Source of the DNA: Thalassia testudinum
Lineage: Eukaryota > Streptophyta > Magnoliopsida > Alismatales > Hydrocharitaceae
Direction: 5' to 3'
Assembly: GCA_037157565.1 (NCBI GenBank)
Contig: JAZHRO010000022.1
Coordinates: forward strand, 4,340,001-4,404,000
Length of the DNA stretch: 64,000 bases
Under the pieces are notes generated by a model that was not told the origin of the DNA, did no database searches, and worked only from the letters and a program-made list of their open reading frames with translations. A program made the translations under genes and the position numbers. Shown in pieces: positions 1 to 63,161 of the stretch (its first letter is position 1; each line of letters starts with the position of its first letter).

Positions 1-136
1 AAATACAGCATGGAACAGTATAGGGCCTTGCCCTTTCAGAACAGGGGTCTTGCCCCTTAGAACCAAATAGGGGTCTCGCCCCTCCACAGTCCGTGCACCC
101 TCGTCTGACTATCTTGATTTGCCCAGAGAGCCTAAA

Positions 137-355
137 AAGTTGGTGTAGGGTGGCTAGCTAAACCCCGAGCCCTGTGGGGTGGCTAGCTCCCTCCCTACAC
201 TGGTAGCTCACCTCAGTGCCACGTACACGAGGGCCAATAGGAGTCGGTGTAGAGTGGCCAATTCTAACCCCGGGTCTTAACCCAAGGGAGGCTAGCTCCG
301 CTCTACACAAAAGGGGACAGTTGCTCTCCTTGGTACCACGTACTCAAGGGCCGGT
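137..355. repeat. Imperfect tandem duplication (about 110-bp unit) in the TEK LTR
   Basis: Two copies (about 137-242 and 243-355) share the order GGTGTAGnGTGGC, CCCCGnGnC, GGCTAGCTCC, CTACAC, CTC.CCT.GGTnCCACGTAC and AGGGCC. The same two-copy arrangement is at 39775-39985 in TEK3, whereas TEK2 shows one copy at 10694-10810. The duplication therefore predates the split of TEK1 and TEK3. Confidence 0.6.
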
Positions 356-1020
356 ACACTTCTCATCTACATTCCAGATTTCCATCTATCCATAGCAGTT
401 CTACTCCTAATTCCCCGTAGGGTTCATGCTCATGTTCACCTCATTTATCCGATCCAAATTTCACCTTTCATAATTTATTTCTCATCCATATACAGGCAGC
501 TCGTGTTTCCATAATTCAATTCTCAATACATGCAATTGGTGATTTCACAGGTAATTGTTCATTAAATACAGGTAGTTCATATTATAACAGGCAACTCACA
601 ATTATATTACAGGCAATTGCTAGTAGTTTATCTCAATCATGCATGCAAGTACATCATACAGCACAAACGGTTCATTCATTTCTCTACCCTACAGTTCATG
701 CCACATCCTAGGGTTTCATTCATCTATTTCCACAATCACATTCTTATTTAAATATTATTAACGAAATTAAACCACTCTACCATGCAACATGCGAGTAATG
801 GGGGCTCAAACCGCAGACCCAGACATCTCTGAGACCCCCAAACGCACAGTAGGCTGAAACTCTATACCAGGGAATACATCATAAAAAGAGAGTTCAGAAT
901 AGTGTACAACAGACTCTTGTACATAGAGGAACTCGCGAGGAAAGTACAGGTATTTCATTTGCGTAAAACGGACCCAATCGGATCCTAAACAAGTAAAAAA
1001 TGTGCCTACTGTTCAAAATC

Positions 1021-1201
1021 AGACGTCTGGGAATAATCCCAGACATCTTAAAAGGCATCAGATCTTACGTTATGTTCCTGCGGTATCCTCAGACATCCAA
1101 ACCTTCTCTACGACCGTCTAAAGGCAGTTCCAGACGTCGGATAATACCTCCGGTCATCTGGACGCACCTCCGGACGTCTGGTGATGCAATCAGACATCCA
1201 A
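1021..1201. repeat. Array of degenerate AGACGTCT boxes at 20-bp offsets
   Basis: Boxes resembling AGACGTCTGG start at 1021, 1041, about 1060, 1091, about 1111, 1132, 1152, 1172 and 1192. Most offsets are exactly 20 bp, with one half-step between 1060 and 1091. The core AGACGTCT is a perfect palindrome; the other copies are AGACATCT, GGTCATCT, GGACGTCT and similar. The array lies in the part of the TEK LTR downstream of the minus-strand TATA box. A matching array is at 40628-40767. Confidence 0.75.
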
Positions 1202-1353
1202 AAATGCATGGAAAAGAGTTCCGCATGCTTTCCCAAGGGCCTTTACCTGCGTACAAATCCACAAGTCCAAAATTAGGCCCGACCAGCTTCTGCGGTGTGG
1301 CCTGCATGGCCGTAACCACGAAAAAGAACGTACCTTGCAATATAAGTGCTTTC

Positions 1354-1423
1354 AGACGTCTGGTCTCAGACCTGAATGTCTAGCTGCTACCACGGTCGTT
1401 TGGTCGACTCCCCAGATGTCTGA
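1354..1423. repeat. AGACGTCT boxes, 20/40-bp phase
   Basis: AGACGTCTGG starts at 1354, a diverged GAATGTCTAG at 1374 and AGATGTCTGA at 1414, all in one 20-bp register with a possible very degenerate copy near 1394. Confidence 0.55.
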
Positions 1424-1743
1424 TACTGGAAAAATCCTAGTATCAGCAACTCCCAGTAGCTCGCTCTACTGGCTCGCCTCGCATCGCAATAGCTCCAACT
1501 GCTATAGAGGGTCGAGAGGCCATCTCCCTGAGCCCTCTCCTCCTCCCGCACGCACCTGCCGGTGGCTATGCGAGCTCCGTCGAGATTCCATCGAAGCTCC
1601 TTCGACCTTAGGCCTCCTCCTCCTCCCGTGCTCTCCTCCTTCCTCCCTCTCGCTCTCCTTCGCTCGCCCCCTCTCGCCGCTCTAGCACAAGCACTGAAGG
1701 TGGTGGTGGCTAGTGTGTGGAGTGGAGAGGAGATAGGAGGGGG

Positions 1744-1751
1744 TTTATATA
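1744..1751 (-). promoter_or_regulatory. TATA box of the TEK1 LTR (minus strand)
   Basis: The minus strand reads TATATAAA here, about 200 bp inside the U3 end of the LTR, followed on the minus strand by a purine-rich leader. The homologous site in TEK3 near 42729-42737 is weaker. Confidence 0.5.
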
Positions 1752-1863
1752 ATACGGTGAGGGGTTTAGGGTTTGAGGAAGGTGAGGAAGAGAGAGAGAA
1801 ATGAGTGATTCTGCGTGCCACCCACGCGCAGAGCGCAGTGTGCAGAACAAAAATTTTACTTTC

Positions 1864-1925
1864 AAATGTCCGGGAATGGGTCCAGACGTCTGGACAGACG
1901 TTTGACTGAGACTCCAGACATCTTA
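1864..1925. repeat. Quartet of AGACGTCT boxes with 20-12-20 offsets in TEK1 U3
   Basis: Box starts are 1864 (AAATGTCCGG), 1884 (AGACGTCTGG), 1896 (AGACGTTTGA) and 1916 (AGACATCTTA). The same 20-12-20 quartet is at 42876/42896/42908/42928 in TEK3 U3 and at 40868/40888/40900/40920. It lies between the LTR end and the TATA box, where enhancer or repressor sites would be expected. Confidence 0.75.
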
Positions 1926-1953
1926 AAAGGCTAAAATGTAATGAGTCCTTACA

Positions 1954-4900
1954 TTGTTCCCCCACTTACCCGACATGATAGCCCTTCCACCCAGAGACCG
2001 AGAGTGCCCTTTCCAGAGCGCTTATCTGACTCTGGGCAGACTTTTGCTAGTTCATTTGGAACCAAAGATAGGATGGGCGAAATCATGGAGACTTTCAAAC
2101 AACTGCAAATTAACCTACCTTTGCTTGAAGCTATCAGGCAGAGTCCATCCTATGCTCTCTTTCTAAAGGACCTATGCACGAAAAAGCGACAATCGAGGGA
2201 ACAGGTCCAATCAAAAGTTGTCTTGACTAATTCTGTTAGCTTAATTATACAACACAGGACACCCCTGAAACTTGAGGACCCAAGAGCCCCATACATCTCA
2301 ATGGTCGTTGGTGACCTACATATAGATGAGGCTTTGCTTAATCTGGGTGTGGGGGTAAACATCCTTCGAAGCTATGTATATGAACAACTTGCAGGAGGCA
2401 ATCTGAAGCCTTCCCCTGTAATCCTCCAAGTTGCAGACCATTCTTTGACGACACCACGGGACCTGCTGGAAGATGTCCTCTTGAGAGTGGAGGATTTCTT
2501 CTTCCCCGTTGACTTTCTAGTACTGGACACTGACCCTACCAAAAAACCAACCAAGCCCTCAATCATCTTGGGCCACCCTCTTCTTGTGACTTCTAATGCC
2601 TCAATTAATTGTCACATTGGGGCATTAAAAATGGGCTTTGGGAACAGGAAAATTCGGCTAAATGTGTTTGATGCTTATAAACAAGCTGGATTTGAAGATT
2701 ATTCCCAAGTTGAGGTGGTAGATGATTTGATTGAAGAGACAACTCTTGCACTTTTATGTGATGACCCCCTTCAGCATGTCATGCTTAATGAGCATTCCCA
2801 TCTCTTGGAGGAATGCGAAGGGGATGTGCTAGAACTTGAGGAATTGCTTGGAGTTTCTACTGAGTCTCTCTCCCATCATGTTTGCCTAAGGTAGATCTGC
2901 TACCTGAGATGGGGACTTCTATTTTGAAACCCTCAACCATACAAGCCCCCAACCTTGAACTGAAACCCATCCCAGACTCTCTCAAGTTTGTATTCCTTGG
3001 GGCAAATGATACGCTCCCTATAATCATCTCATCTGCACTATCTGAAGTGCAAGAGGGAGCCTTGCTAGACTATTTATCAAGGCACAAGGAAGCCATAGCT
3101 TGGACAATTGCTGATATTAAGGGTATAGACTCTATGCTTTGCATGCGTCACATTTATACTAATGATTCCATCAAACCCTTTCGAGACATGCAGAGATGTC
3201 TTAACCCCAACATGAGGGAGGTGGTCAAAAAGGAGATTCTGAAGTGGTTAGATGTTGGGATCATTTATCCCATCGCAGATAGCAAATGGGTTAGTCCATT
3301 ACATGTGGTGCCAAAGAAGGTAGGCTTCACGGTAGAAACAAATGACCAGGGTGAACAAGTGGTGACTAGACCATCAACTGGTTGGAGGGTCAGCATTGAC
3401 TACTGCAAACTGAACACTGCTACCCAGAAGGATTACTTTTCCTTGTCCTTTATTGATCAAATCCTAGAGAGATTGGCAGGGAACAAGTATTTCTACTTTT
3501 TAGATGGATATTCTGGGTACAACTAGGTTGCAGTCTTCCCTGATGACCAGGATAAGACAACTTTCACTAGTCCTTATGGCACTTTTGCGTTCAGGTGTAT
3601 GCTATTTGGATTATGTAATGCACCAGCAACTTTCCAGCGGTGTATGATGTCCATTTTCTCGGACATGATTTATGACTTGTCTTTCAACCTATGTCTCCTG
3701 CACTTAGAGAAAGTGCTGAAAAGATGTAAGGAAACTGGTTTAGTCCTCAGCTGGGTGAAAAGCCACTTCATGGTACTGAAAGACATTGTACTTGGCATTT
3801 TGTGTCTAAAAGGGGCTTGGAAGTAGATAAGGCTAAAGTTGATTCTATTTCCAAACTCTCATTGCCCACGAATGTCAAACAAATTAGATCCTTTATGGGC
3901 CATGCAGGCTTTTATAGGCGATTCATTAAGAATTTCAGCAAAATTTCTAGGCCACTTTGCGACTTATTGGCAAAGGAATCTTCCTTTGATTTTGATTCAA
4001 AGTGTGCCATGGCTTTTTATACATTGAAGGAGGCCTTGACCTCTGCGCCTATTCTCTGAGCTCTTGATTGGACACTCCCATTTAAGTTGATGTGTGATGC
4101 TTCGGATTATGCAGTGGGAGTCGTTCTTGGACAGAGGGTTGAGGGAAGACCACATGTGCTGCACTATGCTAGAAAGACTTTAACTAAACCATAGCAAAAC
4201 TACATAGTCACTGAAAAGGAATTACTTATTGTAGTTTTTGCTCTGGAGAAGTTTAGGTCTTATCTTCTTAGATCCAAGATGGTCATTTTTTCTGATCATG
4301 CGGCAGTGAAACATTTCATTACCAAGAAAGACTCTAAGCCATGTTTATTTAGGTGGATTCTACTCCTTCAAGAGTTTGATTGGGAAATTCGTGAAAAGAA
4401 AGGAGTGGAAAATGTAGTGGCTGACCACCTATCTCGCCTTCCCCTTGATGATTCTCCATCTGGAGACATCCACAAGACATTTCCCGATGAAACCCTTATG
4501 GCAGTAACACCAACTTCACCATGGTATGTGGATACAGTTAATTACTTGGGCACTGGAGAAACCCCTGGCTCTTGGGATGTGCAAAAACGGAAGCGATTCA
4601 TTTCCCAAGCTAGATTCTTTCATTAGGAAGAGCCAAAATTATTTCATATTGGACAAGACCAAGTTTGGAGATGATGTGTGCCTGAAGAAGAGCAACAAAG
4701 TGTGTTGAGATTTTACCATGAGCTTCATTGTGGAGGACACTTTGGTGCTAAGAAAATAGCTTTTAAGGTTCTCTAGTCCGATTTTTGGTGGCCTTCTTTA
4801 TTTAAGGATTCCCATTACTTCGTTAAGACTTGTCTTAGATGTCAACGGACTGGAATGATTAGGAAGTGGAATGAGATGCACCAACACCCTATCCAACCTG

Positions 4901-7103: not shown

Positions 7104-8864
7104 TGATGTGCCCATATTTGTTGGCTAATTAGTTACTTAAGTGCCTAGGCATTAGATTACTATTAGCATATACATAGCATGCATTAAGATATAAATAATT
7201 TAGTTTATATATATTTTCTTGTATGCATTCCATATTTAAATTATTTAGCATGCATTAGAATAACATGCATTAATCTTTAGGTTACATTATATGCATATAT
7301 TCGAATTAAGATTTTATTGAGGATTTATACATAAATAAACTAATATTTTCATTATTTATTTTTATTCACTTCTTCTTCTCTGCAGCAACGGCCTTCGAAC
7401 AATGAAGGAACGCCTTAATGGCCGAAGAAAGTGGATCTTGCACATCGTCATCGCTCCATCTTCTCCACGTTCCTGCAAACATAAAAGAAGGGCTCTTGCA
7501 TCCTTAGCACAGCAGGCCACCATTCCCGACCCACCACTATGTAGAGACCAAGTTCTCCTCCATTCCACCACCACCGGCCTCGACTGCGATAGTCTGTTGC
7601 ACCACCATAGGCGTGCATCGTGATGAGATGCTCCGCCAAATCGGAGGAGCTACATTACTGTGAGCACTTCAGTGTGCACCCCTCCACACTGCAACAACAG
7701 CGTGCAACATCACCCTCATTGCCATCACCAGCAACAACCTCCAGCTCCTCACCCCAGCGCCAGTTAAGACGTCCAGGGAATTTCCTAGACGTCTGACACA
7801 TCCCCTCACTGCATCTTCCCTACACCTCAGCACTGTTTTTCTTCCACCAACAAATCCAACACCTTCATATCAGCCATACCCCCACGGCACAACATGCCAC
7901 CACAAGCAAGCACCCATTTTTCCCCTCGCATGTATGCATTCTCTAGTAGTAGCTGTTGCATAGCCCGCGAGCCTATGCCAGCACACGCACACACAAGCCA
8001 TCACCCCATCATTGTGCCTCCGCATGCATAGAAGCAGCTTCCCCACGCATCTGTCTGGCCTGCAGCGTGCAGCAGCAGCAGCTGTGTACTCCACATGCGC
8101 CACCCTCACAGCCATGCACTGAGTATCCTCCGCGTGCGCACCACCCATGCAGGTCCCCTCCACGCGCGCCTTTCCTCCCCCAGCCCGCAACAGCAGCACC
8201 TATGGTCATGCTTAGTAGCTTCTATGTGCATCCACACGACCTACGAACGTCCTAGCCGACCCCCGCCCTCAGCTTCACAAGTGCCACACCAGCAACAACA
8301 GTAGAGTTGCAACCACCACCATCCATCATCGCTCTTCTCCTTGCCGCTGCCGCCTCCAGCCACCGTTGCCCACGAGATCACCACCACCAAGTAGCCCTCT
8401 ACCTACTCGACCTCTGGCTACAGCCTCACCGTTAGCCTTGGTCTCCTCCTTGCGCATGGATAAGGGGAATCCATTCCTTTATTTTGCTACAGTAGCATAG
8501 GTATTAGTTATTACATCCATTGCCATTGCCAATCCAACATTTTTCATTAAATGGAATAGATATATTGCATGATTTTATTCAAATAGCCTTCCACTTTCAC
8601 ACAAATGCAATTTCAGCATAACTTCTCATTGTTATCTTGATTTAAAAGCAGATTTGGCTTGATTGCTTGACAAAATCAATAGTGAGCTTTCATTTTTGAT
8701 ATTAACAAGTTTAATTAGGGAATTGCCTCTCTGTGGATACGACTCGCTCCTCATTGAGTGGTTACTTTAATTACTTTGATTAGTCGATTTTCCACCACTT
8801 TAAAATATGATAAATCATCTTAATCATCTTATTCGAAAGCAAAAATTGACTCATCATCTTTCCA
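7104..8864 (+). repeat. ATH1 3' LTR
   Basis: It starts with TGATGTGCCC after the PPT. An AT-rich head (to about 7370) is followed by a C-rich, low-G middle (7380-8460) and an AT-rich tail containing CCTCTCTGTGGATACGAC (8723), the U5 motif seen in the other OTA LTRs here. The end was set at TCTTTCCA by alignment with LTR-F, which ends TCTTTCA at 42577. Short open frames in the C-rich part are low-complexity and are not called as genes. The end is approximate. Confidence 0.6.
7767..7796. repeat. AGACGTCT box pair, 20-bp offset, in the ATH1 LTR
   Basis: AGACGTCCAG starts at 7767 and AGACGTCTGA at 7787, exactly 20 bp apart, as in the TEK and NAE LTRs although the surrounding sequence is unrelated. 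Confidence 0.65.
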
Positions 8865-18760: not shown

Positions 18761-20454
18761 TAACAGGATGTTTATTTGGACCTACTTAAAGAGCTTAACC
18801 AGGTCCTCCTTGAGAACCATGGGTTTGGGTTTCATCTTTCCTTTGGTCAAGGCCTTTGGAAATGGAATCTCTACAGGTTACTCTAGAATTGGTCCAAGTT
18901 CTTGATCTAGGACAGGGGTATCCTGGATGCCCAAACTAGGGTTTGTTTTTGAACTACCAGGCTGATAGTGGCTCGGGTAAGGTGGGTCCTGAGTTGTTTT
19001 GCCACTATGGGTGGTAATAGAATTCAGTCATGCCTAGTTCCAGGTAGGGGTAGGCAAAAGAGATGGTTGCTGCTGATAACCCGCGTATGATGTCGAAGCC
19101 TCCATCCCATCGGGTGATGGAGCAGAAGGGGCCTGATAAACATAGTGAGCCTGGCCCTGAGTCGAGTTCATAATGTGCCTCTGGTTTAGCATGTTATTTG
19201 GATTGGGGAGAGGTTGCGAAGGGAGTGCACCAGGTTGGCGAGGATTTACCATCTGGGCAAGTTGATTACGAACCTCTGTGACCTCATCTTTGCACTATTT
19301 TTGCATAGCCGTATTCTTCTTCTAAATGTCAACCAGAGTATGAAGGATAATAGTCATTTGATCTTCTCGAGTTGGCTCGGTTTGGTAAGTTAGGTTGGGT
19401 CGAGGTTGAGGCGATTGATATGGACGAGAAACTTGTGGTTGGGGCTGATATTGAGGTCTCTGATTTTGATTGTTCCCTGACCATGTGAAATTAGGATGAT
19501 TATGCCATCCAAGGTTGTAGCTGTTTGAGAAAGGATCATTTTGGATGGCATTGAGGTCCTCGCAGGTCTGAGGAACCTGAAGAAATCAGAAGACGAGGGT
19601 TTAGAGTTCCCCCAACTCGAGTAAGCAGATCCGGAGCTTCCTCCGAACCCTAAATCAGATGGGTATGGATCCATTCCCTGAGAAGATCAATGGTAGATGT
19701 TGTGCACAGCCTCCCTCCCAGAGGGTTGTTGTGCAAATGGGTTTTGCGTAGAGGTGGCTCACTACAGATGTCGAGTCAGCTCATCCACCTTCTTCTCAAT
19801 GATCGAGACCTTGTCCAGGCGACTGGCCATTAACTCCAAGTCGATGGAAGAGGACAGGCCCTGCGTCACATGTGCTCCCTGTGGATTCGTCAATGCACGA
19901 GCAGTCTTCCAGTCGAACATGCCCATGGATTCATTATTGATGGAGTTCTCGCACATGTTCTCAAGAATCTCCCAAACGGTGTCTTCGTGTTGACCCATGA
20001 TGTTTCCCCCACAGGTCGCATTGATGAATAATTGAATATCCTCACGGAGTCCCTGGTAAAAAGACTGGACTTGTTCCCATTTAGGAACTCCGTGGTGGGG
20101 GCACTTTCTCATGAGATCCAGAAAGTGATCCCATGCCTCATGAAGTGGTTCTCCTACTTGCTGCATGAAATGTGTGATCTAGTGCCGCAGAGCATTTGTC
20201 CGACCAACAGGGAAGAACTTTTTTAGAGACTCAATTTGTAGTTCAGCCCATGTGTTGATTGGATGAGTTAGGGTTTGGTACCAGTGAGCGGCCTTGTCCA
20301 TGAGAGAGGAGAACATTTTCATGAGCAAGATATCCCAATTTTGAGCTTCTGAGCCAAAGGTTTGGGCCAGATTCTTGAGTTGCTTGATATGCTAGAAATG
20401 ATCTTCGGACTTAAGCCCATGAAATTTAGGAATGGCATGAATCATGTTGGGCTT
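18761..20454 (-). pseudogene. ATH2 gag remnant, C-terminal two thirds (interrupted by soloA1)
   Basis: The minus strand encodes the Gag capsid core from 20454 downward: KPNMIHAIPKFHGL, FFPVGRT, GEPLHEAWDHFLDLMRKC, PHHGVPKWEQVQSFYQGL and MENMCEN-like. A lysine-rich hinge with KVDELTRHL follows, then a Gln/Pro-rich tail (19700-19030). The part near 18840-18770 (VPAYARFLKDV) leads into protease. Stops and frameshifts are present. The frame is interrupted at 20460-22098 by a solo LTR; removing it and one copy of the 5-bp duplication restores an ELKP motif expected in this family. Confidence 0.82.
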
Positions 20455-29081: not shown

Positions 29082-29314
29082 TGTTTTCACGGTTTTGTGC
29101 GGGTTTTAAAAGAGAATATGTCACGTTGTAGTATAGCCGACAAAGCGTTCAAACAAATAGAGAATTTTATTACTCGAAAATCAGAGTATCTGAGGTCGAA
29201 CACAGGGAGCAAATGGAATTTACTACTAATCAAAATGTAATTGAACACTCTAATTTACTCAAAACTGGAATTCAGAGGTATTTAAAAAAATAATTCAGGC
29301 AAAATAGTCAAATT

Positions 29315-29344
29315 GGACGTCTAATCCCAAGATCAGACGTCTTA
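29315..29344. repeat. AGACGTCT box pair, 20-bp offset (NAE1 3' LTR)
   Basis: GGACGTCTAA starts at 29315 and AGACGTCTTA at 29335. Confidence 0.7.
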
Positions 29345-29690
29345 AAAGTGTTTATTTTTCTTCTTCTGCAGACTCTTTTTCTTCTTTGTCTTCTTTCTTG
29401 GCTTCTCTTCTTTCTCTTCTCTCTTTCTGCTTTGCTTCTTTTCTTGCGAAGGCTTCTTCTTCCTACCTTTGTTTCTTGTTTCTTCTCCTGCCTTGCTCTT
29501 CCTTCTTTCTTCTTCTGATCTTTGCAGTCTTCTTCTGCCTTGCCTTCCTTCTTCTCCTGCGAAGGCTTCTTTCCTCCTACTTCTCTTCTCTGCCTTGCCT
29601 TCCTTCTCCTTTGGTCCTTCTGTTCTTCCTGCCTTTCCTTCTTCCTTCTCGCGGCCAAGTCTTTCTTCCTCAACGTTCAGCCTGTGCCTA
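29345..29690 (-). repeat. Polypurine tract of about 350 bp in the NAE1 leader (3' LTR)
   Basis: The minus strand is almost pure A/G with GAAGAAGAAGG words. It lies in the transcribed part of the LTR. Translated frames are Lys/Glu/Arg low-complexity and are not called. Copies are at 36500-36850 and 50560-50990. Confidence 0.65.
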
Positions 29691-30907
29691 CACAGAGCAA
29701 AACCTACCCCTTTTCCCTCTACCCGCGCATCTCTCTCTCTCAGCAATTCACTCAAGGACGCTCTCCCAGAGCCACATGGATAATCGGGTCGGATCGTACC
29801 CGGGACCAAGCACACCTGTAGGTGGTGTGATGCGCGAGGAGTGCTCAGGTTTAGGTCGAGTCGGATCCCGCCAGATCCGCGAGATGAAACCGCGGACGAG
29901 GCAGGCGTGAGGGCAAGTGAGGGACCTCACCCCTGTGCTTTTGGAGGCGTTAAGGCAATATCACAAATTCAATTTATGGCGTAGCGGCACCTCGTCTCTC
30001 CACGATGTGGGACTAAAGGTTCTGCCCTGATTTCGCATGCGCTCGCAGACTTGAGTGCCATCCCCACAGCTGCTGGCTTCTCAGCGCCCCTGGTTGGACT
30101 CAAAGCACTTCGCATCACTCGCGTGAACCTGCTGCGTCTGCAGCCTGGGAGCCCTGGCGCCTGGAGCTGCGTTGGAGCTTCTTCAAATGTCGTCCATGGC
30201 GGCAGGAGCGTCGACACTGTCAGACATAAACACGGCCTATTGGCCCAATCAGACTAGCTGGACACCTTCGCCGTGGCACGGCGAAGGCGGTGGACAGTGT
30301 TGCAGGCCGCAGGTCGGCCTAGGCATGCGTGCCTAGGTCAACCTGTGGCTGGAAGTGTGGGGTTGTCGGGGGACTATTGCGGAGGTGCGGAGTGGCAGTG
30401 GAGGGGTGGAATGTGTTCCTGGTGGTGAGGCGGAGCTTACGAGATGGTTGGCGAGCCGTGTGGAGGGGCGGAATGGTGTGGGCGGCTCGCCGGAGGTCAG
30501 TTGGAGATGTGGAAGATGAGGGTGGTCAGCGTCGGTAGAGGGTCGATTAGATGGGATAATAGGGGGAAAAGAGAGAGGGGACTATGGGGAATAGTTCTAA
30601 CCTAATTGTAGGGATGAAGGAGGACGGAGGGCGGAGGGCGGACAGTTGTACCTACTGTCGCCGGAGAAGACGCTACCCAGTGGGGGAGAACGGCGGCGAC
30701 GATGGGGCTGAGGCGGCGTGCGCAGGTACTGCGCGACGCGGAGGAGAGTCAGGAAGATAACTTTGCCACTCGTTTTGTGGCAGAGTGAAGAGGGAGGGGA
30801 GGGGGCTCGCCAGAGCTTGCTGGGAAATTTGGCCAGGCAGGGGGAGATGAATTGGAGGTGGAAACTCAGCCAAATCAAGCTGAAGATCTGCGACCGAGCT
30901 TAGAGGT

Positions 30908-30916
30908 TATTTTATA
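30908..30916 (-). promoter_or_regulatory. TATA box, NAE1 3' LTR
   Basis: The minus strand reads TATAAAATA. The paired site in the other LTR is at 38071-38079. Confidence 0.6.
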
Positions 30917-31853
30917 GGCACTGGGCCGTGCTGTCAGAGCGTGGAGGGCGCGCAATCGCTTGAGGTTGGTCGTCGGAGATGGAAAGAGGTTAAGATACCC
31001 AAATCTCTCATGCGTTCGCATGAGAGATTGGGTTCACACCAGAGATTGTGATTGGCTGTAGATGGAAGGGAATTCCTCAGAGAATCTCCCTTCCATTTCT
31101 GGGAGAGAATCTCTGAGGAATCAGAGAGTAATCCCTCTCTAAACCTCATCGGTGCTTGGTTCTGCCCTAACAATGGCAGCAGGACCTGATTGCAAAGGTG
31201 GCGAGGAACTTAGGGGGCTCTCTGCAAATATATTCAAAAGATAGGGACCAAATTATGATTTGGGTGTACTGAATTGCAAAGTAGGCCAAGATGACCTCCC
31301 CTTAGGTCCAAATTTTGGTAAAAACCTAATTTGGACCTAAGGAATCCAATGGTGAAGTTGGATTTTATGTTTGACCTCGTTTGATTGGACATTTTGTGCA
31401 AAAACCCAAATTAGGTTAATTGAATAGTTGGGACCCTAATCTATGTCAAAATGGGTTCCAAAGGCCAAATTAAATGTTCCAAACCCTAGAGGATGTTTTT
31501 CCATGATTTTTAGAGGGTTTACTTGATTTTTATCTTGACCGGAACCTTGTTAATTTAAGCGGGTCTGTTTTAGGGTTACCAAGTGTCATTAATTCCTAGA
31601 TTGCACATAAACCCATTTCTGATTGACTCAACCCACTTTTTATCTCATTTAGACCATTTGACCTATGTTTTGCCTCTGAGAAATCCTTTTTATGTACTGC
31701 AATGGTAAAATTGCAGTTTTAACCTTTATTTCATGTTTTCTTCTCAGAGCACTTGTTCCTTCAGTTAAGCCTTCTTCTAGGTTATGCAGGAGCTTTTATC
31801 TTATTTATTGGGTCAAAATGAGCTAGTTATGGCTTATGATGAGGCTCTCATCA

Positions 31854-31870
31854 TACCCCTATGCCTAGCT
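31854..31870 (-). other. Polypurine tract of NAE1
   Basis: The minus strand reads GCTAGGCATAGGGGTA directly before the LTR start TGATGAGAGCC. Confidence 0.7.
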
Positions 31871-32084
31871 TTTGCTAGTCCCTTAGCAAAATTTCAAGGT
31901 TTTAACTTCCGTTCTAGACCCAGAGTGTCCTCAGTTATGATAAGTGCTTCTTTTGTGATTAGGTCAGAATGCCAATAATAGGCCTAGAGGTACTCAAGTA
32001 CCAACCAAAATCTGGACCTGTTCCGCTTTAGCCTCAGTCCTCCGCAAAGGTTTCTACGGCCCACAGAAACTAACCTAGGGTTTG

Positions 32085-32150
32085 TTGGACTCCGCGGTTA
32101 AAGCACCCGTGCTTGAGACATTTTTAGCCTAAGTTCAGTTTGCAGTGCAT
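32085..32150 (+). other. tRNA-like stretch, antisense to NAE1
   Basis: TGGACTCCGCGGTTAAAGCA is followed by a degenerate B box AAGTTCAGTTTGC. It is homologous to 13765-13830. Confidence 0.35.
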
Positions 32151-32288
32151 TTTTTTTGTAAGAGAGAGAGATAGAGGATTTATTTGTTTGGAGAGCTTTT
32201 CTCTCTCTTTTCTTTTTATTTCTAGCTTCGGATTAGCTTCTCAACACGGTTTGTATCGGATTCCTCGTCCCCATCATCAATCCTCAAG

Positions 32289-32388
32289 GGTCCCTGGCTT
32301 TCGAGATTTCGAGATAATCCCACCCATGGCGTTCCGTGGTCGAATTCAGACCTTAGCGATTGACATTTCGTGATAATGCCGCCCATGG
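32289..32388 (-). repeat. Spaced repeats of the 3' module (NAE1, two copies)
   Basis: The copies at 32289-32329 and 32347-32388 correspond to copies 1 and 3 of ATH2; the middle copy is lost. Confidence 0.6.
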
Positions 32389-32404
32389 TATCTGAACCAG
32401 CAGA

Positions 32405-32454
32405 GTGCTTACATGGCCCCAGTAGGATATTTAAATATCCTAAGAGACAAGCAC
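32405..32454 (-). other. Conserved hairpin of the 3' module (NAE1 copy)
   Basis: The outer arms are GTGCTT/AAGCAC; the centre is the perfect palindrome TAGGATATTTAAATATCCTA. Confidence 0.75.
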
Positions 32455-33130
32455 CAAGGAGACGATGTGTTGTTACGCATCTTCAAGGGGAATTTCCTGC
32501 CTCTCCACGTCGGGAACTCGTCCAAATCAATTTGTGTTGATTGGCCGCTCCTAATCTAGGTGACTTTTTCAGAACATTAAACGCTTTTCGCGTGATTTGG
32601 ATGTTTATGCGCACTGAACCAGACTGTGTGTGAATTTGGGGTGCTTAGGTTACCGAATCCCGCAAACCGAAAGTTAGTTAACGAGGTTGAATACTTCCTA
32701 AGCTTTAGACCTAATACTTAAACTTCGCATTTTCCTCAACCTCTTGAGGATTATCCAGATTTTAGCGGATACGTGAATTTTTAAGCTAACAAATCTAGCC
32801 CAAGAGGCCTAAGACTAGCGTTCCCGCTAATCTCTTGTTGTGTCTCCTTAGCACTTTTTCTTTTATTTCTTTTCTTGATCTGGTCTAGAACTTCAGTTAA
32901 TTCCTTAGTCTTTTACTAATGACTATTTCTTTTTTCTTTCTCATTTTGTGCTCCTTTCTTCATTTTTGCTCTTTTTCTCCTCTTTATGAATATGTGGCTC
33001 ACAAAATTTCCTCCCTCCCCTTTTTTTTGTTCTTTTTCATAGTTTTTCAATTTTTTTGTGTTTTTGACATATGCGAATTTTTTGTAGGAATCCTTCTAAC
33101 TTTTTCTTGGTTCTGTATGTATGCACTTTA

Positions 33131-33168
33131 TCACCTCCCATGCCTAAGTTGTGCAATGTCCTCATTGT
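33131..33168 (-). other. First PPT-like motif of NAE1
   Basis: The minus strand reads CAATGAGGACATTGC then TTAGGCATGGGAGGTG, just downstream of the acidic ORF. Confidence 0.55.
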
Positions 33169-33374
33169 AAACATAGGGTGTGAACTAGTGTTGAGGTCAG
33201 TGGCTTAGAACAGGGTATATCGGGTGGGTGAATGGGTCGAAAATGACTGATGAGAATGATTTCAAGCTCTGATACGTGTACCAGAGGTGGGATCAACTGT
33301 CTAAGGCTGAACTCAAGGTGCAATAAACATGGAGTACAGACGGATAATCAAACGGGTCTCTATTTTTGGGATGG

Positions 33375-33420
33375 CGGGTTGCCTCCCGTTAAGTGCTAAA
33401 TTTAATGCCTTCAGTCGAGC
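33375..33420 (-). other. Post-ORF motif shared with ATH2 pol
   Basis: CTCGACTGAAGGCATTAAAT then AACGGGAGGCAACCC on the minus strand. Its TGA is the stop of the acidic ORF. Confidence 0.65.
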
Positions 33421-36205: not shown

Positions 36206-36226
36206 TCCCTGGCAACGGTGCCAAAA
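36206..36226 (-). other. Primer-binding site of NAE1 (tRNA-Asp type)
   Basis: The minus strand reads TGGCACCGTTGCCAGGG next to the LTR end, complementary to the 3' end of plant tRNA-Asp with two changes. Confidence 0.72.
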
Positions 36227-36459: not shown

Positions 36460-36489
36460 GGACGTCTGATCCCAAGATCAGACGTCTTA
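36460..36489. repeat. AGACGTCT box pair, 20-bp offset (NAE1 5' LTR)
   Basis: GGACGTCTGA starts at 36460 and AGACGTCTTA at 36480. Confidence 0.7.
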
Positions 36490-36499
36490 AAAGTGTTTA

Positions 36500-39071: not shown

Positions 39072-39774
39072 TGTCATGACCCGAGCCTAGATCCCTATAG
39101 AACCCGAGACCGACTCACCTCAAGTAATCCTATGACCCTGTCGTCCAACGAGAAATAACCAAATAACATGCATCAATCCACAACTGCACAAGTACAGTAG
39201 CTAAGCAGAAAGAAATTGGCAACAAAAGGAGAAATAGAACAGTAATACTAGAATATTACATGCCTTCAGGAACAGGAATACTGCCATCACAATAAAACTA
39301 GTACAAATAGAGAACATAACGGAAAGTACTGAAAATATAACTAAAGGAACTCACTACAACTAGCAGTAGAAACTATAGCAGTAGAAACTATAGAGATCTC
39401 TAATCAGGATCCATTACATTACTTTAATCTTCCTATTCTCTAAAGGAATGATCTTGCTTGCAGTTTTCCTATGATGCAAGATGCACACATGGCACTCTCT
39501 TAGCCAGGAGAATCCCTCCATGGTAGTCCTACACCCGATCTACCACCTCAAGGTCACAGTCATGACGTAGTGATGACTACAGCACACGTGATAAGCGCAC
39601 GGGTAGCTGCCCAGCACTGGCACACGATCAGTCATTTCCGCTAGCGGGTACGGCTCAACGTATAGTGCAGAGCAGTATAGGACCTTACCCTCTCAAAACA
39701 AAACAGGGGTCTCGCCCCTCCTCAGTCTGTGTACTCTCGTCCGACTATCCCGATTTGCCCAATGGGCTAACAAG

Positions 39775-39985
39775 AGTCGATGTAGGGTGGCCATGCCTAA
39801 CCTCAGGCCCCCAAGGCCGCTAGCTCCCCTCTACACTAAGTAACTCACCTTGGTACCACGTACACGAGGGCCAGCAAGAGTCGATGTAGAGTGGCCAAAC
39901 CTACCCCGGGTCTCAACTTAAAGGTGGCAAGCTCCCCTCTACACTACAAGGGATGGTTGCTCTCTTCGGTACCATGTACATGAAG
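39775..39985. repeat. Tandem duplication in the TEK3 LTR
   Basis: Two copies of AGAGTCGATGTAG.GTGGCC...GGTACCA.GTACA.GA.GG.CAGC correspond to 137-355 in TEK1. Confidence 0.6.
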
Positions 39986-40627
39986 GTCAGCTCACTTTCC
40001 TTAACAGCCGCCTGTGGGCGGCAGTTCCAGAACCATTCGGTTCTCCGTGATGTGGTATTCTTGTCTTATTCTATATTCCCCATAGGGTTGGTTCATGACT
40101 TTCCCTTTATCCAGTTTAATATATATACAGAACAGGCAGCTCAATCATAGTGCAGGTTTGTTCGTAATGTAGTTCATTGTAGATAATACAGACAGCTCAT
40201 GATTTACTCAATTATTCACATGCACTTTTCTCTAGCCCTACTGTTCATATCACAACCAAGGGTTCAATTGGATAACTATATTCTAGAGCATACATTTATT
40301 TCTTCCTAGGATTCATCTCACATCCTAGGCTTTTAACTAATTGCATGCATTTTATTTAACTTGAAGAATTAGTTAGAACCACTCTACCAAGATAATCGGG
40401 TGGAATGGGGGCTCGTACAGCAGCTCCCGACATCTCTGTAGGTCCCGTACACTTGACGGATTGGAGACCTAAGACATGGATTGACAGGTCAAAAAGGGTT
40501 CAAGTGCTACTTATAAGGTACCATTACATGGAGTAGAACGTATGGGAAACAAGGACGTTTTGTTTATGGAAAATTGACATAGTTTGGGCCTTGTACGGGC
40601 CTAAAAACACGAGGTCTGACAAAAATC

Positions 40628-40767
40628 AGACGTCTGGGAGAGACCCCAGACATGTTAAACCAACTTGCAGGCATACCTCTCTCAGGGTGCCTCTATCGGA
40701 TGTCTGGAGCACATTGCCGACATCTGAGGGTTCCGTCAGACATCTGGAGATGCTCCCAGACGTCTGA
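40628..40767. repeat. AGACGTCT array, 20-bp offsets (TEK3)
   Basis: Starts are 40628, 40648, a degenerate copy near 40669, then 40698, 40718, 40738 and 40758. As in TEK1, two 20-bp runs are separated by a half-step of about 30. Confidence 0.75.
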
Positions 40768-40867
40768 AACTGCTTTGTGTCGTGCCCCACCGAGCCTCCC
40801 AACCTCTGACACATGCGTATGCATTGTCAAGACTCGGTAGACAAGAAGGAAAAAGTAAATCTCTACT

Positions 40868-40929
40868 AGACGTCTCATAATACCTTCGGACGTCCTCCCA
40901 GACATCTGGAGGTCACTCAGGACGTCTGA
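40868..40929. repeat. AGACGTCT quartet, 20-12-20 (TEK3 leader)
   Basis: Starts are 40868 (AGACGTCTCA), 40888 (GGACGTCCTC), 40900 (AGACATCTGG) and 40920 (GGACGTCTGA). Confidence 0.72.
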
Positions 40930-40950
40930 TTCCGTGGAACCGCTCTAGGA

Positions 40951-42577
40951 TGAGTCCATTAAAATGGACTAATATTAAGCCTAAGAATATTTAATCGTAT
41001 AGTTTAGGTATGTTAATAATGGCAATTAAGTTATAGAATAATTGTACACCTCATTATTTAAGTTATAACATTCTATAACTTAATGATTTTATTATTTTTA
41101 TATGCAGGTAATAAAATACACAAAGAGCAAGGGTGGGGGGATAATTTCCCCAAATAGCTGCAACTCTTTCCCCCTCCCCCGCTGGACATTTGGGTAATCT
41201 TCTCTTCCGCCGCCTTTCTCAACAACTGTGATTGAGGATTTGGGAAAATCCCTGAACTCACGCGCAAGGGAGGAGTTAAAGAGAGGAGGCGAGGAGAGAG
41301 AAGGATCTTTCCCCCTCGCGGGGAACTGCTTCACCGTGGAAAGGGTGAACCCTGTGACCCACCGGGTGCACTGTGCACCAAGCATCCATCCTCCAGCGCC
41401 CCCTACTGCAGGCGCTCACGCCACATCTGCCTGCAACCGTTCAGAACAAGTGCCCTCTCCGCAGACGTGCGCCCCCCCTTCCCGCGCCATCAACCCATCC
41501 ACCCTCCAGTGCATCCCTTCACCGCCAGCCTCCACCCCACAGGCGCACGTCCATCTGCAGGTTCTCCACTGCAGCGTTTCTCCTCTCTACAGACCACCAG
41601 CACCCACACCGTTTCTGCCTTTCCAGCACACCAAGCCCTCCAGCGCCCCCTGCTGCAGGCGTTCACGCCACCCAGCCCACGCGCCCACCTCCGTCCAACT
41701 ACAGGCGCCCGCAGATGCACAATCGCACCCAACCACTTCGCCCATCTGCAGGCCACAGCGCCTGCACGGCCATCAGCAGGCGCAGCACCACTCGCCTGCG
41801 CCCACAGGCACTAACTGTAGACCGCCGCACCCTCATGAGCAGACCCGCGCCACAGCCGCGGCCACTGCAGCAACCTTCGCCGGTCCTCATCTCCTCCGCC
41901 GGTCGGCAGCCTCCGGCCGTCGCCGTCGACACCGCTGCCACCATCGGAGAGCCCCCGTCCTCGCCGTCCTCCTGAGCATCGCAACTACCCCGCCGGTGCT
42001 CTCTCTCTTTCGCGAGGAGGAGAGAGAGCAAATGCTCTGTTTTCTCCACCATTAAAATTTACAGAAAATGCCATTATCAAGTTACTATTCATTTATTTTC
42101 TAAATTAATATATTGCTGCACAATTTACATGGACACCCCTTGCTTAATTCAAAATTACATATAATTGATTTCTCCTTCTGAATGACATACAATCTGAGAT
42201 ATTAATTATAGTATTATTAGTTAGGAGATTAACATTAACATTGTTTGTTATTACCAAGGTCATTATTTCGAATATTATATTATGGTAATTTTGCATATGC
42301 ACCCTCATCTTCTTGATTAATTATCTATATTGCAAATTTATGTGAGAAAAAGAAAAGCACGAAGTAGCATGCATATCTATTGAGTTTCCTGAATAAACGT
42401 GACACTATTTATTAAATTAAATGGGCTAATTCCTCCCTGTGGAGATGACCTAACTATTTGTTGTTAGATTCTGACAATTAAAATGTTTTTGAAAAGCGAT
42501 TATCTACCACGCGATTAAATACAATGATACATCATTTTATGATAAAGTTTTAAACGAAAACGGAGATCGCTCTTTCA
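40951..42577 (+). mobile_element. LTR-F: solo LTR inside the TEK3 LTR, same broad family as the ATH1 LTR
   Basis: It has the same build as 7104-8864: AT-rich head, C-rich middle (41230-42050), and AT-rich tail with CCTCCCTGTGGAGATGAC and GATTATCTACCAC, ending TCTTTCA. TEK LTR sequence continues on both sides. The start at TGAGTCC is the best guess and no clean TSD was found. The 275-residue Pro-rich frame at 41228-42055 is not called as a gene. Confidence 0.6.
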
Positions 42578-42875
42578 ACTCTCCTCACCACAGATGCTGC
42601 AGAGAGCAGCACGGCACCCTCAGCTCTCACATTCAGACTCGTGATCAGCTCTCCGCTCTTCGCTCTCCACTCGCTCTCTCCCTCTCTAGCTCAACGTGAG
42701 GGTGTGAGATGAAGTGGAGGAGGAGGACTTATAAAGGGAGAGAAGGTGAGGGGAAGGGCATGGGAGTCACAAGGAGTGGTGCGGGGTGCAGGTGATGGTT
42801 GTCGCAGGGTGAGGCATGAGGCATGGGCGAGGGAGTGGCGTGCGCATGGTACGTGCCGAAAAGAAAAAGCATCTC

Positions 42876-42937
42876 AAACATCTGGCTCTCTCTCCAGACG
42901 TCTGGACAGACATCTGGTGAACATCCCAGACGTCTTA
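42876..42937. repeat. AGACGTCT quartet, 20-12-20, in TEK3 U3
   Basis: Starts are 42876 (AAACATCTGG), 42896 (AGACGTCTGG), 42908 (AGACATCTGG) and 42928 (AGACGTCTTA), the same positions relative to the LTR end as in TEK1. Confidence 0.75.
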
Positions 42938-42965
42938 AAGGACTGAAAGGTGACAGGTCATTTCA

Positions 42966-43200
42966 ATATAACAAACTTAAAGGAAGTTTCATCCCCAAAA
43001 CTTGAGCTAACTAGGTGTGGAAAATTAACGTAGTAGCGTATAACAAACTTAAAGAGGACTGAAGTTGGTCCGAAGAGACATACCCTCAAAAAGCTCCGGG
43101 TATTGCTTTCATGGCTAAGGACATGGCTGGGATCAACGGTGCACTCCAGAGAACTGGGGAGGAAGGGCAAGTCGGTAAGCGATGGGTCCTACCTGTTCTA
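42966..43200 (-). other. TEK3 3' end with degenerate PPT region
   Basis: It lies between the end of pol and the LTR. The minus strand has a purine-rich GGAAGT..TTAAGTTTG stretch at the LTR edge. The chromodomain expected here is not recognisable beyond a DPSHVLSH fragment (about 43130). Confidence 0.4.
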
Positions 43201-45092
43201 AGACCTCAAAAGGCCCCACAAATCTCAGTGCAAGCTTCCCTCTCACCTTAAACTACTGTAAGCCCTTCATGGGCAAAACATGGATGGAAACGTGATCCCT
43301 AACCTTAAATTGTACCTCCATACGCTTCAGATCAACGTAGTTCTTCTGCCTACTCCGGACAGTACGTAGTTGTCGATGGATCTTCACGATCACCTCCTGA
43401 CTCTGGCGTATTAGTCGGGGACGAACCTCCCACTTGGTCCCCACCTCAACCCAACTTAAGGGAGCCGTACACTTCCTCCCATACAGAGCCTCATATGGTG
43501 CCATGCTGATGCTCGAGTGATAACTGTTCTTGTATGTGAACTCTACCAGGAGCAAATGCTACTCCCAGGAGCCTCTCCAGTCCAATACGCAAGTGCGTAG
43601 AAGGTCCTCAAGGGTATGAATGGTGCGTTCCAACTGTCCGTCTGTCTGGAGGTGATAAGTTGTACTGAATTTCAGACGAGTCCCTAAGGCCCTCTGAAAT
43701 TCTGCCCAAAATTGGGAAGTGAAATGAGTGTCTTTGTCTGAAATAATCTCGCAGGGGACCCCGTGAAGGCGTACCACGTCTCTGATGTATTGCTCTGCCA
43801 ATTGGGTGGGTCCGAAAGTGACTCGGATCAACAGAAACTGTGCCGTCTTTGTCAATCTATCTACAATCACCCAGACTACATCGTGTCCCTGCTGTGTCAC
43901 AGGTAATCCCACTACCAGGCCCATAGTGACACTCTCCCACTTCCATTCTGGCATGGGAAGTGGCTGCAATGGCCCTGTAGGCCTCTGGTGCTCGGTCTTC
44001 ACCTGCTGGCATATCAGACTCTGCTGAACGAAGTGACCAACATCTCGCTTCATGCCCCTCCAGTAGAAATCACATTGTAGATCGTGATACATCTTCGTGT
44101 TCTCAGGATGTATGGTAAATCTAGATCCGTGTGCCTCAGTCAGGAGCTCCCTCAACAGCTCCTCTTCTCTAAGAACGCACAAGCGTCCCCTCATGTGCAA
44201 GACTCTGTTAGTGAACGATAACTCTCTTGGGCTCCCTGCCAATACTCGGTCTCACTGTGCCTGTAGGTATGGGTCCGTCATCTGTTTAATCACGATGTGA
44301 TCCATCAGCTCTGATCGTGTCCGCCTCGCCACTATCACTGTCTCGTAGTACCCCTGTGACTCCTGGGGTCGCTAGCTACTTAACTCCTCCATGAGTCTCC
44401 AACTTTGTGCTCATAAGCAAGCCAAGTGGGCGGGAGCCTTTCGGCTCAAGGCATCAGCAACCACATTGGCCTTCCCCAGGTGGTAGGAGATGCTGCAATC
44501 GTTGTCCTTCAGGAGCTCCAACCAACGTCTCGGCCTCATGTTGAGCTCCTTTTCGTCAAACAGGCATCGAAGGCTCTTATGGTCAGTGAAAATCTCGAAC
44601 GTCTCTCCATACAAGTAGTGCCTCTAGGTCATCAGTGCGAGGACAACCGTTGCCAACTCTAAGTCATGGGTGGGGTAGTTATGCTCATGCAGCTTCAGTT
44701 GCCGCAAAGTGTATGCGACAACGTGACCCCACTACATGAGCACACCCCCCAATCCTTGCAACGAGGCATCTGTGTAGACGATGAATCTACCACTGCTATC
44801 AGGGATGGTCAGTACAGGAGCTGAGGTCAGCCTCTCTTTCAGCTCCTGAAAGCAAGACTCACACTCGTTTGTCCAAGCGAAGGGTACATCCTTTCAGGTC
44901 AACTGAGTCAGAGGATGTGCAATTTGCGAGAATCCTCGGATAAACCATCTATAGTAACCAGCCAGTCCCAGAAAACTACGAATCTCTGTCACCGTACGCG
45001 GTCTTTCCCACCTGAGCACTGCCTCCACTTTGGCTGGATCTGAGATTACATGGCCTAGGAAGGTGACCTGTCTCAACCAGAACTCGCACTTG

Positions 45093-50990: not shown

Positions 50991-50991
50991 T

Positions 50992-51021
50992 TAAGACGTC
51001 TGATCATAGAATCAGACGTCT
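50992..51021. repeat. AGACGTCT box pair, 20-bp offset (NAE2)
   Basis: AGACGTCTGA starts at 50992 and AGACGTCTAA at 51012. With flanks TTA..TGAT and ATCA..TAA the pair forms an inverted repeat. Confidence 0.72.
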
Positions 51022-61029: not shown

Positions 61030-61960
61030 TGATGTAAACACATTTACACTACTTAAAATGTCTATTTATGCATGTTCTTAAGCATAGGATTGCATTTCAT
61101 AATATAAATATTGCATAACATGCATCATCTTGCATTTAGAGTAGTTTGAATAAAATGGAGGTTAATTGTCTCCTTTTATGTGCTTGGACAGGGCAAACAT
61201 TTAATCGGGGCCTCGGATCAAAGATCCAACCATATGGATGTGATCATGGCGACGATTGGAGTTCAACGACTCCAAGATCGCCCTAATCAGGCATCCGTAG
61301 CATCAGATAGAGACCGGGGAACCCTAGAAGATCAAGGGCCAGGATGGTGTAAATCCGCACTTCAGATGGCAAATCTGACCACACGGATGAATTCGGATCG
61401 ACGATCGCAGCCCAACGACACAAAAATCGAGTCAATCCGACATCCGTGGCACCATCTACAACTTCCAGAAGATGGACGGCCAAGATGGCGCCACGTGGCG
61501 CCATCTCAGCCGCCCAATCGGCCGCATGCGTCTTGTGAAGACCACGCACCGTCTCCTCTCCGCCGTTGGATCTCGATCCAACGGCTGCGGTCGCTCGCGC
61601 TTTAAAGCGTCCGCGCGACCATTTCGCCCGCGTAGCGCAGCGGCGACGCAGCTGCGGGCGAAGCGGAGGTCGCGGGTTCGAGCCGCGGTGAGGGGGTGGA
61701 AGGCGCAGGCGAGCGGGCGCGCACGAGCGTCAGATGAAGATCCAACAGCTGCGCGCGCTCAATCAGGACGACGCGCGATTGCATGCCGAGCGTAACGCGC
61801 GATCGCACGCGGGCGGGCGCGCTACGTAGCGGGCGCGGACGCGATCTAAGCCGTCCGATCTCGCGATCGGACGGCTGAAAATCAAGCGACATGCGTAGGC
61901 GTTATGCGCGGGCAGCTGAGCGGGCGCGTGTGGGCGCGGAAGCGACGCGCGCGCTGGGGG

Positions 61961-63145: not shown

Positions 63146-63161
63146 TCTGCTGGTTTAAATA

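What the first reader, a model, noticed from the sequence alone, without database searches (positions are those of the whole stretch)
1021..1925. AGACGTCT palindromes locked to a 20-bp register in the TEK LTR, with a 20-12-20 quartet
In TEK1 the starts 1021/1041, 1132/1152/1172/1192, 1354/1374/1414 and 1864/1884 fall at multiples of exactly 20 bp. Four boxes near the LTR end have offsets 20-12-20 (1864, 1884, 1896, 1916). TEK3 repeats the quartet at 42876-42928 and again at 40868-40920, though the sequence between the boxes differs. Spacing is kept better than sequence, which suggests paired binding of a protein on one face of DNA (20 bp is near two helical turns). The GACGTC core is the plant bZIP C-box core (established). 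A role as enhancer, silencer or insulator is inference.
Basis: partly seen in the sequence, partly recalled or inferred. Interest (0 to 1): 0.82.

Follow-up and report, generated by a model that had tools for sequence, protein, structure and literature searches.

The report
Phased palindrome arrays in retrotransposon LTRs
In this plant genome, unrelated families of jumping genes carry the same eight-letter palindrome in their control regions, repeated at a few fixed distances, which suggests that they are read by the same DNA-binding regulator.

Summary
The window lies in a 4.26-Gb plant genome. There exact AGACGTCT pairs occur 212,299 times at offset 20, 54,917 at 12 and 43,822 at 22, but only 896 at 21 and 55 at 16. 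In the two window LTRs (59% identical outside the clusters), three quartets and one pair keep their internal spacing, except one change of exactly 8 bp (20 to 12), while all distances between clusters differ. The same pair, often with TTAA at one end, also sits in Athila-type Ty3/gypsy LTRs of the window and in a Ty1/copia LTR elsewhere; spacers are near random between families. Most likely these are arrays of sites for a dimeric, palindrome-reading protein, probably a host ACGT-core (bZIP-like) factor. Steps of 12, 20 and 22 bp fit one helix face, but 21 fits best and is rare, so descent also shapes the spectrum. Protein and effect are untested. Some arrays grew by in-register tandem duplication and Tekay-type copies show no box constraint, so a partly neutral origin stays open. 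Solitary pairs also form hairpins.

The parts
1..1955 (-). TEK1 LTR (Tekay-type, lineage name recalled); 5' terminus near 1955, left end beyond the window
   Evidence: homologous to the TEK3 LTR; its 5' end abuts a + strand gag-pol-like frame
1864..1923 (.). Q1 quartet, spacing 20-12-20, LTR positions 33-92
1741..1751 (-). TATA-like box at LTR position 205, about 113 bp downstream of Q1
   Evidence: pattern match only; the same pattern found none in TEK3
1354..1421 (.). Q2 quartet, 20-20-20 (boxes 1354, 1374, 1394, 1414; two of them weak)
1132..1199 (.). Q3 quartet, 20-20-20
1021..1048 (.). P pair, offset 20, inverted repeat with 12-bp arms and 4-nt centre; preceded by TTTTAA in LTR sense
39400..42967 (-). 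TEK3 3' LTR (5' end near 42967; longer than TEK1 between Q1 and Q2 by about 1.5 kb; left end not fixed)
42876..42935 (.). Q1 quartet of TEK3, 20-12-20, LTR positions 33-92
40868..40927 (.). Q2 quartet of TEK3, 20-12-20 (8 bp shorter than in TEK1)
40698..40765 (.). Q3 quartet of TEK3, 20-20-20
40628..40655 (.). P pair of TEK3
43559..44251 (-). integrase fragment of the TEK3 element
   Evidence: PF17921 49.2 bits (cut-off 25.5), rve 20.9 bits (below its cut-off 32.6); 4273 of 4705 candidates at E<=0.001, best 6e-87
29315..29342 (.). box pair in LTR 29082-31853 of family C (Athila-type, name recalled), LTR position 2512 of 2772
36460..36487 (.). box pair in LTR 36227-39017 of family C (possibly the other LTR of the same element)
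50994..51021 (.). box pair in the C2 LTR starting at 48460 (+ strand)
7767..7794 (.). box pair in the 3' LTR of element G (LTR start about 7106, + strand)
61849..61876 (.). 28-bp inverted repeat in an E-family LTR: same frame (TAAG, 12-bp arms, 4-nt centre) but arms not self-palindromic; a relative at 55868-55895

Best explanation
The arrays are cis-regulatory binding platforms in LTRs. Each RGAYRTCY box (best form CCAGACGTCTGG) is the site of one symmetric protein dimer. Boxes are held 12, 20 or 22 bp apart, distances that put successive dimers on about the same face of the helix, where they can touch each other or a shared partner. In the TEK1 LTR one array lies about 113 bp upstream of a TATA-like box; others lie further down, probably in the transcribed part. 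The GACGTC core points to an ACGT-binding bZIP-type protein. Shown: boxes, spacings, conservation of spacing, sharing between families, copy number. Inferred: protein binding, its identity, and an effect on LTR transcription (activation guessed, because the carrier families are so abundant).
For: Exact pairs in the genome: offset 20 = 212,299; 12 = 54,917; 22 = 43,822; 21 = 896; 16 = 55; reversed-pattern controls 6, 1, 2, 3, 23. Fifteen fetched 10-kb stretches: 54 exact boxes against 0.8 expected, next palindromic 8-mer 23; exact nearest neighbours within 34 bp are at 12 (6), 20 (17), 22 (4) and 32 (2) only. TEK1 against TEK3: 9 of 10 intra-cluster intervals equal, the tenth differs by exactly 8 bp; identity boxes 87/112, spacers 49/104, outside 731/1243; gap openings 30 in 1243 outside columns, 1 in the clusters. 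Between families boxes match in 13-15 of 16 places and spacers in 0-7 of 12 (14 comparisons). Copia-type H: non-CpG box positions differ in 4/306, spacers 51/398, outside 413/3865 (three comparisons sharing copies). H lies beside a frame with Retrotran_gag_2 over its cut-off, and one of three copies is a 1721-bp TG..CA unit with a 5-bp flanking repeat. TTAAGAYRTC: 8 in the window against 0.52 expected, 7 of 8 begin a pair, those 7 all in LTR sense; in the 150-kb sample 13 of 15 that can be judged begin a pair at 12-22 bp (a sixteenth lies at a stretch end). bZIP_1 has 32 matches in the genome (150 of 1923 candidates scored), so no sign of a bZIP amplified with the elements.
Against: No occupancy or expression data. 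Offset 21 is exactly two helical turns yet rare (896), so phase alone does not set the spectrum; counts come from a few very numerous families and are not independent events. In three comparisons of Tekay-type copies (two of them with the same copy, L006 and L008 being one place) boxes diverge like the rest: 16/294 against 238/4246 outside and 22/300 in spacers. CpGs in boxes change like other CpGs in both families. In-register tandem duplications exist. With up to 2 mismatches off-phase neighbours (16, 26, 27, 28 bp; 2-3 each of about 100) appear in the 100-kb sample, and offset 8 recurs (3 at up to 1 mismatch). Position 1 of the box is A or G, not the T of TGACGTCA.
Confidence: 0.5

Rival explanations
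1. Neutral, palindrome-driven growth: a palindromic seed was duplicated in register by slippage or unequal exchange inside LTRs, spread by retrotransposition and moved between families by recombination. The register is inherited, not selected.
For: 32-bp duplication in the U3 array of L009 and 52-bp duplication in the H copy L003; no box constraint among the Tekay-type copies compared; rarity of offset 21 fits descent from a few founders; shared TTAA flank could mean a transferred piece.
Against: Spacers within arrays no more alike than between arrays (31% of 12 comparisons, 29% of 37); TEK1/TEK3 Q1 inner spacers 4 of 16 identical with all boxes in place; indels between clusters but only one of 8 bp inside (Poisson P 0.03); box constraint in H.
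Confidence: 0.25
2. The boxes are targets of a factor encoded by a transposable element (VANC-like anti-silencing or a retrotransposon accessory protein), acting in trans on several LTR families.
For: VANDAL elements carry dense short motif arrays in non-coding parts that bind a TE-encoded anti-silencing protein and evolve by tandem repeat formation (PMC5735166, passages seen); in-register duplications here.
Against: The VANC21 motif is largely confined to its own TE family, while this pair is shared by gypsy and copia LTRs; no DNA-binding regulator domain among the ORFs scanned, but only part of the element interiors was read; bZIP_1 not amplified, other DNA-binding families not searched.
Confidence: 0.12
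3. The functional unit is a hairpin or cruciform (28-bp inverted repeat, 12-bp arms, 4-nt loop) in LTR RNA or DNA; the palindromic boxes are a by-product.
For: Solitary pairs fold better than spacer shuffles: fraction of 1000 shuffles as good TEK1 0.000, TEK3 0.008, C1b 0.010, C2 0.026, G 0.017; the TEK3 Q1 pair 0.045. In 6 aligned modules 93.1% of cells pair and the covariation score exceeds 500 of 500 shuffles. E-family LTRs keep the frame with non-palindromic arms. Short inverted repeats are enriched: 33 against a mean of 1.9, 25 of them in bases I assigned to LTRs.
Against: Two self-palindromic boxes give 8 pairs for free. The number of pairs changed on both sides (4) is reached by 71 of 500 shuffles, and the six rows are related. 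Over all 21 window pairs spacer complementarity is borderline (P 0.05) and at chance for inner positions (P 0.37); the TEK1 Q1 pair does not fold better (0.445). Spacers listed show some symmetry (44 distinct, P 0.0004; 11 clusters, P 0.02; only the first places of one contig are listed). Quartets and the 12- and 22-bp steps are not explained.
Confidence: 0.1
4. Chance or assembly artefact.
For: None found.
Against: Counts and controls.
Confidence: 0.01

Closest known systems
as-1/ocs elements (TGA bZIP sites)
   Same: two adjacent 8-bp palindromes separated by 4 bp, 12 bp between centres (PMC4677692 and PMC3354754, passages seen); same 12-bp offset here
   Different: half-sites are TGAC/GTCA, not AGAC/GTCT; no 20- or 22-bp steps or quartets in the passages seen
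Plant bZIP C-box (GACGTC)
   Same: identical 6-bp core (PMC7468500, passages seen)
   Different: arrays with fixed spacing in LTRs, flanks A and T
VANC-binding motif arrays of VANDAL transposons
   Same: dense short motifs in non-coding TE DNA, growth by tandem duplication (PMC5735166, passages seen)
   Different: motif in one orientation and largely one TE family each; the word 'spacing' does not occur in that text
HTLV-1 21-bp repeats with CREB-type sites (recalled)
   Same: bZIP-class sites repeated in a retroviral U3 at about two helical turns (recalled)
   Different: animal retrovirus with Tax; the review looked at (PMC12846392, passages) names Tax and CREB but has no match for '21-bp'

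Membership tests
as-1/ocs element | two palindromes 12 bp apart centre to centre | tested here: met
   3 pairs in the window, 54,917 exact in the genome
as-1/ocs element | TGACG half-sites | tested here: not met
   position 1 of 36 listed boxes: A 27, G 8, C 1, T 0 (1091 included, 1394 not)
as-1/ocs element | bound by TGA factors, salicylate response | not testable with these tools
   no binding or expression data
bZIP C-box site | GACGTC core | tested here: met
   met by the exact boxes; over 36 listed boxes the centre is CG 21, CA 11, TG 4, so 15 of 36 have lost the CG
bZIP C-box site | bound by a bZIP protein | not testable with these tools
   none
VANC-type target array | motif confined to one TE family | tested here: not met
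   same pair in Tekay-type, C, G and H LTRs
VANC-type target array | TE-encoded VANC protein | not tested
   only some ORFs scanned with Pfam
Tekay (Del) chromovirus LTR | Ty3/gypsy PR, RT and INT next to the LTR | tested here: met
   RVP_2, RVT_1, Integrase_H2C2 beside TEK3; RVP_2, RVT_1, INT and SH3_Tf2-1 beside a homologous LTR in L011
Tekay (Del) chromovirus LTR | lineage placement of RT/INT and chromodomain | not tested
   lineage name recalled; no tree made; no chromodomain among the matches of the ORFs scanned

The most novel reading that the evidence does not exclude
Unrelated LTR retrotransposons (Ty1/copia and two Ty3/gypsy lineages) of one plant genome have converged on, or exchanged, the same site grammar (AGACGTCT in 12/20/22-bp steps, often entered by TTTTAA). 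Several hundred thousand site pairs would thus be wired to a single host DNA-binding regulator, a genome-wide transposon regulon.
Probability: 0.38. Interest if true: 0.85.

Novelty: new variant of a known kind. Interest (0 to 1): 0.74.

Why it matters
If the arrays bind one host protein, retrotransposons of different superfamilies use the same regulatory code, and the sharp spacing spectrum (20 against 21 and 16) makes the geometry of binding directly testable. It would also mean a vast pool of sites for that protein in one genome. Ten searches of an open-licence PubMed Central library showed no paper, by listed title or abstract start, on this motif in plant LTRs; several listings were capped (30 of 249 for AGACGTCT itself), so this is no proof of absence.

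Tried and rejected
Chance: rejected. One global 20-bp register: rejected, only clusters are locked. One recent tandem duplication as the origin of everything: not supported by the spacer comparison, but kept for some copy-number changes. Viral or plasmid origin: blastn of window 1000-2000 against plasmids gave nothing; the exact 28-bp pattern in viral contigs gave one contig of 62% G+C, taken as chance; the integrase query in viral contigs had 3 pattern matches and no confirmed relative. Purifying selection on boxes in Tekay-type copies: looked for, not seen. Better preservation of box CpGs than of other CpGs: not seen. The 553-aa frame 33411-35072: 5970 candidates, no homologue. Sense-over-antisense hairpin bias: judged absent by eye, no call. 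A bZIP amplified with the elements: not supported. The species was not identified. The offset-19 count (N11) and the N0-30 spectrum did not complete. On checking the draft I lowered the best explanation from 0.55 to 0.5 and the novel case from 0.4 to 0.38 and raised the neutral rival from 0.2 to 0.25, because offset 21 is in phase yet rare.

Full report
WHAT IS THERE. The boxes exist as described. The TEK1 array lies in an LTR on the minus strand whose 5' end is near 1955; TEK3 is a homologous 3' LTR on the minus strand with its 5' end near 42967, beside PR, RT and INT domains. Outside the clusters the aligned parts are 59% identical (731 of 1243 columns). In LTR sense each holds four clusters: Q1 (20-12-20, LTR positions 33-92 in both), Q2 (20-20-20 in TEK1, 20-12-20 in TEK3), Q3 (20-20-20 in both) and P (one pair, 20). 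All three distances between clusters differ. Identity is 87/112 in boxes, 49/104 in spacers (Fisher P 5e-6) and 731/1243 outside (P 7e-5 against boxes); gap openings are 30 outside and 1 inside (Poisson P 0.03). Boxes were chosen by likeness to the motif and register, which favours box identity; four boxes with 3 mismatches were kept. Weak boxes outside the register also exist (1091; 40673 and 40610 at 2 mismatches).

THE BOX. In 36 listed window boxes (1091 included, 1394 not) the pattern is RGAYRTCY: position 6 is T in 36, position 3 A in 35, position 7 C in 34; the centre is CG 21, CA 11, TG 4 and nothing else, which I read as decay of methylated CpG. The commonest neighbours are C before (28 of 36) and G after (22 of 36). 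Inner spacer identity is near chance: 4 of 16 between TEK1 and TEK3 in Q1; 31% within arrays and 29% between arrays.

NOT ONLY TEKAY. The same 28-bp pair occurs in the window in three LTRs of family C and in the 3' LTR of element G, called Athila-type from recalled features. TTAAGAYRTC has 8 matches against 0.52 expected; 7 of 8 begin a pair, those 7 all in LTR sense. In 14 between-family comparisons boxes match in 13-15 of 16 places and spacers in 0-7 of 12; in the 4 pairings tested the 60-bp flanks match in 13-22 of 60.

GENOME. The window is G000:C13:4340001-4404000 of a genome of 4,261,771,670 bases. Exact pairs: offset 20, 212,299; 12, 54,917; 22, 43,822; 21, 896; 16, 55. Controls with the pattern read backwards give 6, 1, 2, 3 and 23. 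Offset 19 did not complete. The counts come from a few very numerous families and are not independent events. In 15 fetched 10-kb stretches (10 of 20 asked, 5 of 5) there are 54 exact boxes against 0.8 expected; 8 of 15 stretches have none and one (L011) holds 20 of the 54. Exact nearest neighbours up to 34 bp: 12 (6), 20 (17), 22 (4), 32 (2); with up to 1 mismatch 7 (1), 8 (3), 12 (11), 20 (39), 21 (2), 22 (7), 32 (1). With up to 2 mismatches a scatter of other spacings appears in the first 100 kb (11, 16, 26, 27, 28 and others, 1-3 each, against 20 at 47 and 12 at 18). At 10.5 bp per turn 12, 20, 22, 32, 42, 52 and 62 lie within about 0.15 of a whole turn and 16 is half a turn off; but 21, exactly two turns, is rare, so phase is not the whole rule.

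A COPIA LTR TOO. Family H (L003, L015, L017; 85-90% alike over about 1.72 kb) carries 20-22-20, 20-12-20, 20, 20-12 and 20-22-20 clusters in L015 and L017, with variants in L003. Beside the L015 copy lies a gag frame with Retrotran_gag_2 (copia-type) at 33.9 bits, cut-off 27. The L017 copy is a 1721-bp TG..CA unit flanked by ATTTC on both sides; no such repeat was found for the other two copies, and with about 1100 places tried one match has a chance of about 7% on its own, though the edge agrees with the alignment edge. Over three H comparisons, which share copies, non-CpG box positions differ in 4/306, spacers in 51/398 and the rest in 413/3865. Three comparisons of Tekay-type copies (L006 and L008 are one place, so two of them use the same copy) show 16/294, 22/300 and 238/4246: no box constraint, as expected if most differences arose after insertion, but also as a neutral model predicts. 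CpGs in boxes change like other CpGs in both families.

HOW ARRAYS GROW. The U3 array of L009 has one more 32-bp unit than those of L008 and L011, and L003 has a 52-bp in-register duplication lacking in L017 (the L015 map agrees with L017). So copy number changes by whole steps of the register.

MECHANISM. I favour protein dimers on about one helix face. The 12-bp step equals the as-1 geometry (two 8-bp palindromes 4 bp apart; PMC4677692 and PMC3354754, passages), and GACGTC is the C-box core, said to be bound mostly by plant bZIPs of groups C and S (PMC7468500, passages). But position 1 is T in none of the 36 boxes, so these are not TGACG sites. bZIP_1 gives 32 matches in the genome with 150 of 1923 candidates scored: no sign of an amplified, transposon-borne bZIP. 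Whether binding raises or lowers LTR transcription is inference.

HAIRPIN RIVAL. The solitary pairs are also near-perfect inverted repeats with 12-bp arms. In TEK1, TEK3, C and G they fold better than versions with shuffled spacers. In six aligned modules 93.1% of cells pair and the covariation score exceeds all 500 shuffles, but the number of pairs changed on both sides (4) is reached by 71 of 500, and rows are few and related. E-family LTRs hold a 28-bp repeat in the same frame whose arms are not palindromic (27.3 and 19.4 bits). Over all 21 pairs of the window spacer symmetry is borderline (P 0.05) and inner symmetry at chance (P 0.37); spacers listed show an excess (44 distinct, P 0.0004; 11 clusters, P 0.02). 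The hairpin does not explain quartets or the 12- and 22-bp steps.

LIMITS. Lineage names (Tekay, Athila) are recalled, not tested by trees. The species is unknown. No binding, methylation or expression data were available. The literature check covers an open-licence PubMed Central library only (ten answered searches), judged from listings except where passages are cited; no paper was read whole.

Noticed in passing
55868-55895 and 61849-61876: E-family LTRs (55049-56796 and 61030-62795, 97% alike) hold a 28-bp inverted repeat in the same frame as the P module but with non-palindromic arms; a relative near 21290 seems to keep the pairing with G-U pairs (read by eye).
   Followed up: partly
whole window: 33 short inverted repeats (12-nt arms, at least 11 pairs, loop 0-14) against a mean of 1.9 in simulations (largest 6); 25 of 33 lie in the 28,167 bases I assigned to LTRs.
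   Followed up: partly
55579-55606 and 61560-61587: Inverted pairs of ATCCAACGG in the E LTRs; likeness to the MSA/MYB3R site is recalled. The search listed two papers, neither on this by title.
   Followed up: no
G000, offset-21 list: Among the listed offset-21 pairs (first places only) the spacer GATTCTGTGAATC or its complement recurs, which looks like a further family with a 21-bp dyad (L010 has a relative).
   Followed up: no
about 1955: The TEK1 LTR 5' end abuts a + strand gag-pol-like frame (1935-3526), as if inserted into or next to another Ty3/gypsy element; the target duplication cannot be seen because the left end is outside the window.
   Followed up: no
20087-20193: Plant snoRNA snoR71 match just at its gathering score (40.2 against 40 bits).
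   Followed up: no
29082-39017 and 48460-64000: Family C elements with about 2.8-kb LTRs and a 553-aa internal frame (33411-35072) without Pfam match or homologue; perhaps non-autonomous.
   Followed up: no
L011 and L009 arrays: An 8-bp step (AGACGTCC followed 8 bp later by AGAAGTCT) recurs at the edge of the Tekay-type Q3 array.
   Followed up: no
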